NCBI GenBank assembly: GCA_903813345.2
Contig: CAIIXF020000007.1
Span: 35,494,538-35,558,537 of the forward strand
From: Owenia fusiformis
Lineage: Eukaryota; Annelida; Polychaeta; Sabellida; Oweniidae
DNA length: 64,000 nt
Reading direction: 5' to 3'
Shown: positions 15,036-62,600 of the stretch, piece after piece
How the letters are laid out: the number at the start of each line of letters is the position of its first letter
Position numbering within the stretch: the first letter of the stretch is position 1
Position numbers and translations under genes: made by a program
The notes under the pieces: model-generated
The model's input: only the letters and a program-made list of their open reading frames with translations
The model's database searches: none
What the model was told of the DNA's origin: nothing

Positions 15036-17525
15036 ACTTACATTGACTTGCCAAACAAACAATAAAAATCATAGAAATAAATAAAACACTTAACATACTT
15101 TAAATATTAAATTGATTATGTAGCTGGCTTCCGATGATGCCTCAATGATGAACGGGGTCTGTATTGTGCAAGATGATGGTCATTCATTGCCGGGACTGGA
15201 CAAACAAACAATGAAGATGTAAGAAAGAAATAAAACATTAAACATACTTTAAATATTAAATTGATTATGTAACTGGCTTCCGACGATGCCTCAATGATGA
15301 ACAGGGTCTGTATTGTGCAAGATGATGGTCATTCATTGCCGGGACTGGACAAACAAACAATGAAGATCTAAAAGAGAAGTAAAACATTAAATATACTTTA
15401 AATATTAAATTGATTATGTAACTGGCTTCCGACGATGGCTCGATGATGAACGGGTTCTGTATTGTGCAAGATGGTGGTCATTCATTGATGGGACTGGACA
15501 AACAAACAATGAAGATCTAAAAGAGAAGTAAAACATTAAATATACTTTAAATATTAAATTGATTATGTAACTGGCTTCCGACGATGGCTCGATGATGGAC
15601 GGGGCCTGTATTCTGCAAGACGGTGGTCATTCATTGATGGGACTGGACAAACAAACAATGAAGATATAAGAAAGAAATAAAACATTAAACATACTTTAAA
15701 TATTAAATCGATTATGTATTCCGACGATGCCTCGATGATGAACGGGGTCTGTATTGTGCAAGATGGTGGTCAATCATTGATGGGACTGGACAAACAAACA
15801 ATGAAGATGTAAGAAAGAAATAAAACATTAAACATACTTTAAATATTAAATTGATTATGTAACTGGCTTCCGACGATGCCTCAATGATGAACAGGGTCTG
15901 TATTGTGCAAGATGATGGTCATTCATTGCCGGGACTGGACAAACAAACAATGAAGATCTAAAAGAGAAGTAAAACATTAAATATACTTTAAATATTAAAT
16001 TGATTATGTAACTGGCTTCCGACGATGGCTCGATGATGAACGGGTTCTGTATTGTGCAAGATGGTGGTCATTCATTGATGGGACTCGACAAACAAACAAT
16101 GAAGATCTAAAAGAGAAGTAAAACATTAAATATACTTTAAATATTAAATTGATTATGTAACTGGCTTCCGACGATGGCTCGATGATGAACGGGTTCTGTA
16201 TTGTGCAAGATGGTGGTCAATCATTGATGGGACTCGACAAACAAACAATGAAGATATAAGAAAGAAATAAAACATTAAACCTACTTTAAATATTAAATCG
16301 ATTATGTATTCTGACGATGCCTCAATGATGAACGGGGTCTGTATTGTGCAAGATGGTGGTCAATCATTGATGGGACTGGACAAACAAACAATGAAGATCT
16401 AAAAGAGAAATAAAACACAACATACTGTAAATATTAGATTGATCGCGTATGAACGGGGTCTGTATTGTGCAAGATGATGGTCATTCATTGATGGGACTCG
16501 ACAAACAAACAATGAAGATATAAGAAATAAATAAAACATTAAACATACTTTAAATATTAAATTGATTATGTAACTGGCTTCCGACGATGGCTCGATGATG
16601 AACGGGTTCTGTATTGTGCAAGATGGTGGTCATTCATTGATGGGATTTGACAAACAAACAATGAAGATATAAGGAAGAAATAAAACATTAAAACATACTT
16701 TAAATATTAAATTGATCGTGTATCTGGCTTCCAACGATGGCTCAATAATGAACGGGGTCTGTATTGTGCAAGATGATGGTCATTCATTGACTTGGACTTG
16801 GCAAACAAACAATGAAGATCTAAGAGAGAAGTAAAACATTAAACATACTTTAAATATTAAATCGATTATGTAACTGGCTTCCGACGATGCCTCAATGATG
16901 AACAGGGTCTGTATTGTGCAAGATGGTGGTCATTCATTGATGGTACTCGACAAACAAACAATGAAGATCTAAGAGAGAAGTAAAGCGCAACATACTGTAA
17001 ATATTAGATTGATCACGTATGGACGGGGCCTGTATTGTGCAAGATGGTGGTCATTCATTGATGGACTGGACAAACAAACAATGAAGATCTAAGAGAGAAA
17101 TAAAACATTAAACGTATTTTGAATATTAAATTGATCGCTTATCTGGCTTCCGATGAAGCCTCAATGATGAACAGAGCCTGTATTGTGCAAGGTGGTGGCC
17201 ATTCATTTATGGGACTTGACAAACAAACAATGAAGATAAAAGAGAGATATAAAACACTTAACTAAACACTCCTTCTTTAAATATTTAACTGATTGTGTAT
17301 CTGGATTGCGATGAAGCCTCATTGTCAACGATGTACGTGGCCTGTATTGTAACAGACGGCGATGGTCATTTATTGATTGGACTTTACAAATAAACTATGA
17401 CGATCTCGCTAAGAAATAAAATACTAAACAAATCGTAAATATAAATAGACTTCTTTTCTTTCCGATGACGCTTCGATGATGAACGGGACCTGTATTGTTC
17501 AAAATGCTCAAAATGATGAAATCTG
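15036..17525 (+). repeat. Tandem array of about 18 copies of the SDR gene's 3' end (149-bp unit)
   Basis: Each unit starts in the coding text that matches AAATTGATCGTATATTTGGC of the intact SDR gene, runs through its last 30 or so codons (ending DKQTMK plus stop) and about 50 bases beyond, including an AATAAAAC string. Successive CTGGCTTCC marks at 15124, 15273, 15422 and 15571 give a 149-bp period; shorter units of about 120-145 bp also occur. Units 15273-15862 and 15863-16452 repeat as a 590-bp block of four, a higher-order repeat. The first (about 15036) and last (17330-17525) copies are the most diverged, as expected at array edges. No copy has the rest of the SDR protein. Most keep the reading frame to the stop. 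Confidence 0.93.
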
Positions 17526-17566
17526 CATGATTTTGAAAAAAATGTGGCCAGGGGGAGCGACTAATG

Positions 17567-59600: not shown

Positions 59601-62600
59601 ATTGCTTTGAGCTTAGTATTCAAGTAATACAAGCAACTTACCAGACCTCCATTTGTTCAATTCCAGTTCATATTTAACAAGCATTGCTTTGAGCTTAGTA
59701 TTCAAGTAATACAAGCAACTTACCAGACCTCCATTTGTTCAACTCCAGTTCATATTTAACAAGCATTGCTTTGAGCTTAGTATTCAAGTAATACAAGCAA
59801 CTTACCAGATCTCCATTTGTTCAACTCCAGTTCATATTTAACAAGCATTGCTTTGAGCTTAGTATTCAAGTAATACAAGCAACTTACCAGACCTCCATTT
59901 GTTCAATTCCAGTTCATATTTAACAAGCATTGCTTTGAGCTTAGAATTCAAGTAATACAAGCAACTTACCAGACCTCCATTTGTTCAATTCCAGTTCATA
60001 TTTGACAAGCATTGCTTTGAGTTTGGCATTCTTCTCTTTTTCTTTCTCATAACGTCTCTTCCATTCCTCTGCTGTAAGTTCCTCATTGATTTGTACAACA
60101 TTCTTGATGGTCTTGGCTCTGTAGATAAAATGTTTTACATTATAGCCATACAGCAAATGTGACCTCTAATCCCTCAGTCACATTTGATCTATGGCAACCA
60201 CACGGAGGCTGTAGCTTTCCAAAATCGAGAGATTATGAAGCATAAAATATAGAGATAAGCAGAACGATGTAGATTTTCAAAATCAATTTTGTGAAGCTCG
60301 GTCACCATAGGGGAAACGTAACTGAGGCTTTAGTCAATTAACTTTAAATGTGCTGCTAATAAGAATCAGTGGGTAACTTCAGTATATAATATAAAGGAAA
60401 CGACAAACCAACTTTCCATTTTTTCATTAGGCCTATACAGAAAGCCTTAGAATTTACACAATTCAATATGAAGTATTTCATAATAGCGCATGACTGTACA
60501 ATAAAACAGTTTCAGCTATAAAGAGGTTAGTTTAACATGTCTTTAAGTATCAGAATTGTTACCTCTGTCCGAACTGCAATGTAGATTTGGTCTCAGACTC
60601 GTTGAATGATGCAGGAGAGCAACATATGATGACCGTGGTTCTAGCATTACCACCCAAACTCTCCTGTAGGATACGAGTCAGCTTACTGTCTCTGTATGGT
60701 ATATGGCTTTTCTGAAATATTAATCACACAAAATGTGTCTATGTGTCTTAGTTATAAAACAATGCAATGGAACTGTACTAAAAAGTTTATTAAAATGTGT
60801 ACATAATGAACTCTGTAAGAGTTGATTGGATTGAAGCTGAACTTTGAGGATACAAAAGCTTGAATCTTTATTTTACTTAAACATAAAAGCATCACTTACA
60901 TTTCCATCTGCCAAGGCTGAGATGACGTTCCCCAAAGCAGAGAGAGATTTGTTGATATTCTTAGCTTCATCTAATACAACACCCTCAGCACCAGTTTTAC
61001 CAACCTAAATTGGAAGAAACAATGCATGTAAAGTACAACAATAAAGTACAACAAATATTTCATACAGGTTAATTTACCATTAGTCAATTGAACACCTCTT
61101 TTATGTCAAGTGTCATGCAGATTTCTTTTTCACTCACATTGATCAAGAACCATCCTCAGTTTTATTTTGCATTAAAGTTTCCAGCAAAAGAGAATTTCAA
61201 GAATGCATCCCTGTGGTTGTTATATAATAGGACTATTAAACCCTTATATGTTTTGTTGTTGTTATCATTGACTGGAGTCTGAAGATTTGCCCAAGTATAC
61301 CTAAACAATTCTGATTAAACCTCTTCTCGATAGTACCAATTATTTTGATTTTGTTTCAATCGAAGCCATGAATCATACAGTAAAACATATACATACCTTT
61401 TCACTACCTGCTAGATCGACTAGATATAATTTTCCACACAATTTCTTTTGATTCTCCAAGTTTTCTTGCTTTATATTGATGAGGAACACGCTGTGACTAC
61501 GTGAGCTGTGCTCATTCATATCTAGAAAAAATGAAGATATGAAAATACAAAATATACAAATCTGATTTCATCACAAACCTGAAAAGGTAAAAGGTACCAT
61601 GTAAATAAGTCACAATCATAAACAATAATTTGTGTAACATATGTATTTTTATATTGAAGATATAAAGTGAGTGTCATTTTTCTCAAGTTCTGCATTCTTA
61701 GTACATATTCAACAGATTAGGGGAGGTACACTAGATCTTGAGGGGGCCAGCATGTTTAACCATCCTAAATTATGTGCCCTGCTTTCCTGAAATAACTACA
61801 CTTGGAATATTTATCTCCTAACGAAGATTTAATTTTCTAAAAAGGCAAAGTTACAGATTACTATGAAAATTCTGCATCAAACATCAAGCAAAGGCTTTGA
61901 TATTATCATTTTCTTTATTCAAACTGTGAAATTTTATCAGACATCCCCATGATCTAATGATCCACCCCTAAGTTCAAAACTCATTAGATTATGTATACAT
62001 GTGATCTTATTAGAAATGTGATCTTTCAGTTCTCTTCCATAGTAAACAGCATAAGTATTACATGACATTCTTAAAGGCAATGCTTTCAACCTTATGCATA
62101 CAAATCAATGGTTACAGCTAGTTCAGACCAAGAGGCTCCAATTATAGATGCTTATCTCAACAAAAATAAAAGGTTACGGAATGAAAATATTCATGAGTTC
62201 AAAATGGCGAAATAAAAGGGGGATATATCATTGAAAGGAAAATATTATTAAAATGAGGGAAATTATATTGAAAATGGAAGGATTGGAGCCTCTGTGGACT
62301 TTCATTATTATCTTATATATTCTTATAAAAAGTACATTGTACTTACAAGTCTGAAATTCACAACTATTAAGTGAATCTTCACACTGAATTCACATTTAAT
62401 CTTCACAATCTTCACATACCAATACCACACTGATACACTTTTCATTTATAGCCGTTGTGAGTTTTTCTGGTTGGCTGTTTCAATAGTTTATTAATATTTC
62501 ATTCTATCTGATTGCTATTGTCATCAGAATCAATACCACACTTGGTATACGCAGCTAACGAAAATTGACCGGTACGGGTCAAAAGCTGGACCGGTACGGG

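What the first reader, a model, noticed from the sequence alone, without database searches (positions are those of the whole stretch)
15036..60118. Recurrent exon-edge tandem arrays: splice sites and a stop codon copied into the flanks of three genes
Seen directly: the SDR tail (149 bp, about 20 copies), MMADHC exon 3 acceptor (45 bp x2) and donor (about 60 bp x2), MMADHC exon 7 donor (39 bp, about 29 copies), KIF5 neck exon donor (82 bp x8) and KIF5 stalk exon acceptor (135 bp x7). In each the unit straddles an exon edge and the extra copies lie on the intron or flank side, keeping the splice or stop signal. Looser arrays abut three more splice acceptors (31981, 46430, 54483). Period, sequence and gene differ, so it is not one mobile repeat. 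Inference: some process in this genome makes exon edges prone to tandem duplication, or copies that keep an intact splice signal are the ones tolerated. I know of no named system that does this.
Basis: partly seen in the sequence, partly recalled or inferred. Interest (0 to 1): 0.88.

Follow-up and report, generated by a model that had tools for sequence, protein, structure and literature searches.

The report
Tandem repeats that cross exon edges
Short tandem repeats that run over the end of an exon are real and fairly common in this animal genome, but exon ends do not look like repeat hot spots: the same kind of array is already known from amphioxus, and it probably survives because one good splice site always remains.

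Summary
The arrays are there: MMADHC (45 bp x2, 39 bp x29), KIF5 (82 bp x8, 135 bp x7) and an SDR stop-codon tail. Some details are wrong: the large SDR array stands 1.5 kb upstream of the intact gene, and the three 'looser' arrays stop short of the exon. The same thing occurs elsewhere in this 498-Mb genome: 14 of 62 arrays in 55 sampled loci cross an exon edge, 12 of them by at most 1.1 unit. If only harmless placements are allowed, 12 crossings face 8.3-9.3 expected (P 0.10-0.20), so no clear excess. Such arrays are in print as amphioxus 'mirages' (PMC3087553, passages). One further result: variants among the extra, presumably spliced-out copies are mostly synonymous (20 of 35; 9.9 expected; P 3e-4), which points to exchange between the live exon edge and its intronic copies.

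The parts
15045..17261 (+). array of SDR C-terminal-codons + stop + 3' flank units, 149 bp, 15 copies; not attached to a live gene
   Evidence: TRF; sequence; 15 copies located
18740..19540 (+). intronless SDR gene (266 aa)
   Evidence: ORF; Pfam adh_short_C2 E 3.3e-51
19466..19794 (+). 121-bp x2.7 array over the live SDR stop codon and 3' flank
   Evidence: TRF
30776..30864 (+). 45-bp x2 over an MMADHC acceptor (exon start 30855)
30953..31103 (+). two 54-bp copies of an MMADHC donor, 97 bp start to start, not contiguous (exon ends 30990)
31986..32079 (+). 18-bp x5 array ending 7 bp before an MMADHC acceptor (32087); does not enter the exon
33155..34298 (+). 39-bp x29 array over an MMADHC donor (exon 33094-33180)
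46476..46533 (-). 18-bp x3.2 array 51 bp from a KIF5 acceptor (exon starts 46424); does not enter the exon
54487..54609 (-). degenerate 25-bp array ending 4 bp from a KIF5 acceptor (exon starts 54482)
55947..56893 (-). 135-bp x7 array over a KIF5 stalk acceptor (exon 56024-55833)
59346..60021 (-). 82-bp x8 array over the KIF5 neck-exon donor (exon 60118-59970)

Best explanation
These are ordinary minisatellites in a minisatellite-rich genome, of the kind called 'mirages' in amphioxus. Tandem duplications of some 20-260 bp arise throughout the genome and change copy number by slippage or unequal exchange (inferred). Those that damage an exon are removed by selection (inferred from their deficit). 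Those that cross one exon edge are tolerated, because the outermost copy still supplies a complete splice site (or stop codon) and the extra copies fall on the intron or flank side and are presumably spliced out (anatomy shown, splicing inferred). With introns of about 330 bp median and units of tens to hundreds of bp, edge crossings are frequent without any edge-specific process (found 1.1 to 1.9 times the harmless-placement expectation, not significant in most settings). The live exon copy keeps exchanging sequence with its intronic copies, so those copies carry a coding-like pattern of variation (inferred from a synonymous excess).
For: Random stretches: 14 arrays in 38 kb, 18% of bases; 55 gene loci: 62 in 249 kb, 8.0% of all bases (small sample, difference not tested). 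Edges inside arrays: 13 of 489 against 8.9% of 210,545 non-exonic bp, ratio 0.30 (0.16-0.48); 4 of 126 against 15.4% in 63 defined introns, ratio 0.21 (0.05-0.52). Window genes: KIF5 2 of 32 edges against 17.1% of intronic bp, MMADHC 1 of 10 inner edges against 38.5%. Same rule for found and simulated arrays: 12 crossings against 9.3 (P 0.20) and 8.3 (P 0.10); between outermost known exons 7 against 6.5 (P 0.48) and 6.0 (P 0.39). Disruptive arrays 4 against 17.8. Array ends show no peak at the edge. The 14 sample edge arrays include 10 acceptors and 4 donors, units 20-260 bp. Median intron 331 bp in 64 defined introns. GT/AG kept in 106 of 107 extra copies of 9 arrays. Published precedent. Exchange: 20 synonymous and 15 nonsynonymous variants among extra copies of 10 arrays, 9.9 synonymous expected; consensus of extras against live exon 8 synonymous, 2 not; detached SDR array near neutral, 9 and 20.
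Against: If no selection is assumed, crossings are in excess: 12 against 5.6 (P 0.006) and 7.1 (P 0.04). With harmless placements only, the subset with unit 25 or more and score 150 or more gives 12 against 7.8 (P 0.06) and 7.1 (P 0.03). Fully defined introns: 4 of 11 arrays against 2.1 (P 0.13). Counting crossings of any depth, as I first did, gave 14 against 9.3 (P 0.057) and 8.4 (P 0.03). One kinesin gene (L022) carries three edge arrays plus one starting exactly at a donor, although overall clustering of arrays is not significant (P 0.22). A low edge-coverage ratio is what selection itself would produce, so it cannot exclude a mutational bias hidden by selection. The exon set is homology-based and incomplete. 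In the single-unit test the deficit of disruptive arrays is weak (4 against 8.2, P 0.07).
Confidence: 0.78

Rival explanations
1. Exon edges are a mutational hot spot for tandem duplication in this genome (for example through R-loops, nucleosome boundaries or replication stalling at exon-intron transitions).
For: 12 crossings against 5.6-7.1 expected with no selection, and 8.3-9.3 with harmless placements only (P down to 0.03 in the subset of long, high-scoring arrays); several edges hit in single genes (window KIF5 and MMADHC; L022).
Against: Edges lie inside arrays only 0.30 times as often as non-exonic positions; array ends do not peak at the edge; the 19 random stretches have no fewer arrays per kb than the gene loci; where annotation is fuller the excess is 7 against 6.0-6.5 (P 0.39-0.48).
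Confidence: 0.13
2. The extra splice sites are functional: redundant donors or acceptors kept by selection, or copies included in mRNA.
For: GT/AG intact in 106 of 107 extra copies, and these two bases vary less than the rest (1 of 214 cells; P 0.02; the rest is inflated by indels there); exon-derived parts vary less than intron-derived parts (81/5306 against 63/2255 substitutions; 0 against 33 gap cells, 29 of the 33 in one array); synonymous excess.
Against: Six-base donor or three-base acceptor cores are not less variable than the rest (P 0.33). Unit lengths are not biased to multiples of three (7 of 19, counted by hand: 14 sample arrays, L016, and 39, 45, 82, 135 bp of the window). Variants in MMADHC (2 synonymous, 4 not) and L022_don57 (0, 3) are mostly nonsynonymous. 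Exchange with the live exon explains the synonymous excess without use of the copies. Copies were aligned on the splice site, which favours agreement there.
Confidence: 0.08
3. Assembly artefact: repeat copy number inflated or invented.
For: Some arrays are 97-100% identical (KIF5 82 and 135 bp; L035 34 bp), so copy numbers could be wrong. No reads could be examined.
Against: Other arrays have diverged copies (SDR 80-86%, MMADHC 93-94% matches); edge arrays occur in 11 sampled loci on several chromosomes (L025 left out); an SDR paralogue 4.2 Mb away has its own diverged tail array.
Confidence: 0.04
4. The arrays are spread by one mobile element or satellite.
For: Random stretches also hold many arrays.
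Against: The edge arrays that I read carry the exon and intron sequence of their own host gene. The one array that I used as a query (SDR) hits only the window, one paralogue and four short matches on three other contigs (the tool gives lower bounds). The other units were not searched.
Confidence: 0.02

Closest known systems
Amphioxus 'mirage' minisatellites (Adh3, BflGb6, BflGb9; PMC3087553, passages read; the 2002 Adh paper it cites is not held)
   Same: Tandem units span an exon-intron boundary at 5' or 3' edges; unit lengths vary from gene to gene; many copies keep AG/GT; concerted evolution within clusters
   Different: Described gene by gene in cephalochordates, with RT-PCR and haplotype data. 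Here: a genome of unnamed species (window 34% GC; 12 large contigs seen), a sampled rate, a placement null and a synonymous-site test; no RNA or population data
Variable internal tandem repeats at exon-intron boundaries of human duplicated genes (PMC2812944, passages read)
   Same: Minisatellites at exon-intron boundaries that alter gene structure
   Different: There defined by copy differences between recent paralogues and linked to new introns or alternative splicing
[quoted passage not shown]
   Same: Tandem duplication that includes splice-like signals
   Different: There the duplication lies inside an exon and creates an intron; here existing introns are lengthened

Membership tests
amphioxus mirage minisatellites | tandem repeat unit spans an exon-intron boundary | tested here: met
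amphioxus mirage minisatellites | both 5' and 3' exon boundaries affected | tested here: met
   10 acceptor and 4 donor arrays in the sample; both kinds in the window
amphioxus mirage minisatellites | many copies keep AG/GT | tested here: met
   106 of 107 extra copies in 9 arrays
amphioxus mirage minisatellites | normal splicing is not disturbed | not testable with these tools
   no RNA data
amphioxus mirage minisatellites | length instability between haplotypes and in soma | not testable with these tools
   one assembly, no reads
amphioxus mirage minisatellites | occurs in a cephalochordate | not tested
   species not named. 12 large contigs and 498 Mb fit Owenia fusiformis (12 chromosome-scale scaffolds, 505.8 Mb; PMC9977687, passages), inference only
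intron gain by proto-splice-site duplication | duplication inside a coding exon creates a new intron | tested here: not met
   looked at for the window arrays only: the extra copies lie in an intron (or, for SDR, in the flank), and the MMADHC model is open without them, as is KIF5 around its two arrays

The most novel reading that the evidence does not exclude
Exon ends in this genome are in continuing two-way sequence exchange with up to dozens of untranslated copies of themselves in the adjoining intron. The intron then holds a coding-competent reservoir from which the exon end is repeatedly rewritten, and there may also be a mild mutational bias towards exon edges.
Probability: 0.24. Interest if true: 0.6.

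Novelty: new member of a known kind. Interest (0 to 1): 0.34.

Why it matters
It turns a striking list into a measured rate: 13 of 489 sampled exon edges (about 3%) lie inside a minisatellite, which selection and short introns can explain without a special process. If the species is not an amphioxus, mirages are not confined to that group. It also gives a testable sign, synonymous excess in untranslated copies, that minisatellite turnover can pass sequence between introns and coding exons.

Tried and rejected
Whole-genome scan: not possible, because G000 gives no file and letters are capped, so I sampled 56 gene loci and 19 random 2-kb stretches. Gene loci were chosen from hit lists of three Pfam families, for exon density, before any array search. 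The lists have 263 rows; I entered 192 of them. The other rows lie outside the fetched loci or are further copies in L016. L016 was dropped from the placement statistics because its 18 tandem hits were already visible in the list.

Under one rule, 2 of the 14 (L025, L035) count as too deep, leaving 12; replace the P values. Because of this I lowered the hot-spot rival from 0.15 to 0.13 and the novel case from 0.25 to 0.24, and raised the best explanation from 0.77 to 0.78. An earlier run with 190 exons gave 13 of 62, 10.8 expected with no selection (P 0.26) and 7.6 with harmless placements (P 0.03), with a similar mismatch of rules in its second figure.

Doubtful rows among the 14: L025 (probably a wrong exon end), L018 (exon start misplaced; at 1257 the array still crosses it, checked), L019 2037-2206 (4 bp overlap only), L035 (donor position uncertain). 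L005 2434-2701 looks like a true edge array but is not counted, because its exon was outside the exon set.

Codon positions are wrong for L016 and were redone. One search used ten arrays; L013, L018, L019, L025, L035, L036, L005 2434-2701 and the 45-bp MMADHC pair were left out, and so were L029 and the 154-bp array of L022, with one aligned extra copy each. The intron mismatch rate is inflated by indels; the gapped count is. One search failed by a script error and was redone. Paper searches found nothing. One search found 61 papers and listed 15; of these I read passages of one, PMC2812944, which one search had also listed. One search found 47 and listed 20; besides PMC3087553 I read passages of one, PMC2891723.

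Idea rejected: exon-edge arrays persist longer because the exon copy is conserved. By eye they are not more diverged than intronic arrays; not tested formally.
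Full report
Observation. MMADHC: 30776-30864, two identical 45-bp copies over an acceptor; 33155-34298, 39 bp x29 over a donor. KIF5 (minus strand): 59346-60021, 82 bp x8 over the neck-exon donor; 55947-56893, 135 bp x7 over a stalk acceptor. The spliced MMADHC model is open throughout; the KIF5 model as joined loses frame at one exon start that I had placed two bases off, and is open before and after it. 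Pfam gives MMADHC, SDR (adh_short_C2) and Kinesin, and PDB sequence matches give kinesin heavy chain and CblD.

Corrections. The 149-bp SDR-tail array (15 copies) lies upstream of the intact SDR gene 18740-19540; only 121 bp x2.7 runs over the live stop codon. The exon-3 donor pair is spaced, not tandem. The three looser arrays stop 4, 7 and 51 bp short of their exons.

Sampling. G000 has 498 Mb and gives no file. I took exon hits of Myosin_head, tRNA-synt_1 and Kinesin and fetched 56 loci, 253,555 bp, before looking for arrays; 192 of the 263 listed hits were used. With exons added by tblastn between loci (same-locus hits dropped) the set has 249 exons. L016 is excluded from the placement statistics, because its 18 tandem copies of a kinesin exon part were visible in the hit list. 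As background I took 19 stretches of 2 kb at round coordinates.

How often. Sixty-two arrays (unit 12 bp or more, score 80 or more) lie in the 55 loci: 14 cross an exon edge, 2 lie inside exons, 46 touch no known exon. Of the 14, 12 enter the exon by at most 1.1 unit. Kinesin locus L022 alone has a 154-bp and a 76-bp acceptor array, a 57-bp x17 donor array, and a 39-bp array that starts exactly at a donor. The phenomenon is therefore not peculiar to the window.

Is it more than random placement? In this sample they do not: 13 of 489 edges (2.7%) lie at least 4 bp inside an array, against 8.9% of 210,545 non-exonic positions; ratio 0.30, bootstrap interval over loci 0.16-0.48. In 63 introns with both edges defined by homology the figures are 4 of 126 (3.2%) and 15.4%, ratio 0.21 (0.05-0.52). 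In the window itself: KIF5 2 of 32 edges against 17.1% of intronic positions, MMADHC 1 of 10 inner edges against 38.5% (the first acceptor, 30855, is not an inner edge). The 19 random stretches carry 0.37 arrays per kb and 18% of bases (14 arrays); non-exonic gene sequence 0.29 per kb and 9.5%. Of 34 arrays (score 60 or more) ending within 130 bp of a predicted edge, 13 end 0-59 bp outside it, 7 end 69-122 bp outside, 11 end 4-57 bp inside the exon and 3 end 94-119 bp inside: no peak at the edge.

What selection does. With found and simulated arrays under one rule (crossing = at most 1.1 unit into the exon), uniform placement of whole arrays gives 17.8 that would swallow, sit inside or deeply enter an exon, against 4 found (none of 4000 simulations as low); placement of single units gives 8.2 (P 0.07). 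With no selection at all, 5.6 or 7.1 crossings are expected against 12 (P 0.006 and 0.04). With only harmless placements allowed, 9.3 (P 0.20) or 8.3 (P 0.10) are expected against 12. Between outermost known exons, where annotation is fuller, it is 7 against 6.5 (P 0.48) or 6.0 (P 0.39). Stricter array thresholds give P from 0.03 to 0.14 for whole loci and 0.22 to 0.44 for the cores (exon set as it is). In fully defined introns it is 4 of 11 arrays against 2.1 (P 0.13). Point estimates of the excess thus run from 1.1 to 1.9. A mild excess is possible; nothing here calls for a strong hot spot, though I computed no upper limit.

The extra copies. In nine arrays 106 of 107 extra copies keep GT or AG, and these two bases vary less than the rest (P 0.02), while the wider splice core does not (P 0.33). 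In a gapped count over 11 arrays (109 extra copies), exon-derived positions vary less than intron-derived ones (81/5306 against 63/2255; gap cells 0 against 33, 29 of these in one array). Cells are not independent, and copies were aligned on the splice site. More telling, minor variants among extra copies in 10 arrays are 20 synonymous and 15 nonsynonymous, with 9.9 synonymous expected at transition weight 2 (P 3e-4; the largest P when one array is left out is 0.011). The consensus of extras differs from the live exon by 8 synonymous and 2 nonsynonymous changes. Against this, MMADHC (2 and 4) and L022 57 bp (0 and 3) show mostly nonsynonymous variants. The detached SDR array, which no longer adjoins a live gene end, gives 9 and 20, near neutral (P 0.21; difference from edge arrays P 0.03, one-sided). 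The simplest reading is continuing exchange, by conversion or unequal crossing-over, between the live edge and its copies, with selection acting only on the live one. This is an inference from one assembly.

SDR history. A paralogous SDR gene without introns, ATG at C7:39743776 (ORF in L076), has its own tail array, 150 bp x3.1. The tail array may predate the gene duplication, have been passed on with it, or have arisen twice. The upstream array in the window may be what is left of a lost neighbouring SDR copy (inference).

Known or new. Minisatellite-like tandem duplications of exon-intron boundaries are published in amphioxus as 'mirages', with AG/GT kept in many copies, unit lengths of 10-72 and 150-160 bp, regular splicing in RT-PCR, and haplotype and somatic instability (PMC3087553, passages). 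Boundary minisatellites are also described in human duplicated genes (PMC2812944, passages). In the listings of my searches I saw no report for a genome like this one; two of them were cut (20 of 47 and 15 of 61 papers shown), and the library lacks most subscription papers. Species: 12 large contigs and 498 Mb fit Owenia fusiformis (PMC9977687, passages), which is an inference only. I file this as a new member of a known kind.

Noticed in passing
G000:C9:37986009-37994334 (-): Twelve successive exon-sized matches to the same Myosin_head positions (roughly 18-84): probably a large cluster of mutually exclusive exons in a muscle myosin gene.
   Followed up: no
L016 346-3189 (G000:C2:23266345-23269188, -): 159-bp x18 array over a kinesin exon, read by me as an acceptor array with about 130 bp of exon per copy; visible in a Pfam hit list as 18 hits to the same kinesin positions.
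   Followed up: partly
window 861-5471: Long ORFs that look like pieces of a LINE-type retrotransposon (endonuclease-like, zinc-knuckle-like, by eye).
   Followed up: no
window 17700-18470: Inverted repeat between the detached SDR array and the SDR gene, seen by eye; possibly a foldback element.
   Followed up: no
window 30776-64000: MMADHC and KIF5 are neighbours, as MMADHC and KIF5C are in human 2q23 (recalled, not tested).
   Followed up: no
L022 (G000:C6:40704000-40710600): One kinesin gene with four arrays at exon edges plus a 463-bp x2 intronic repeat.
   Followed up: partly
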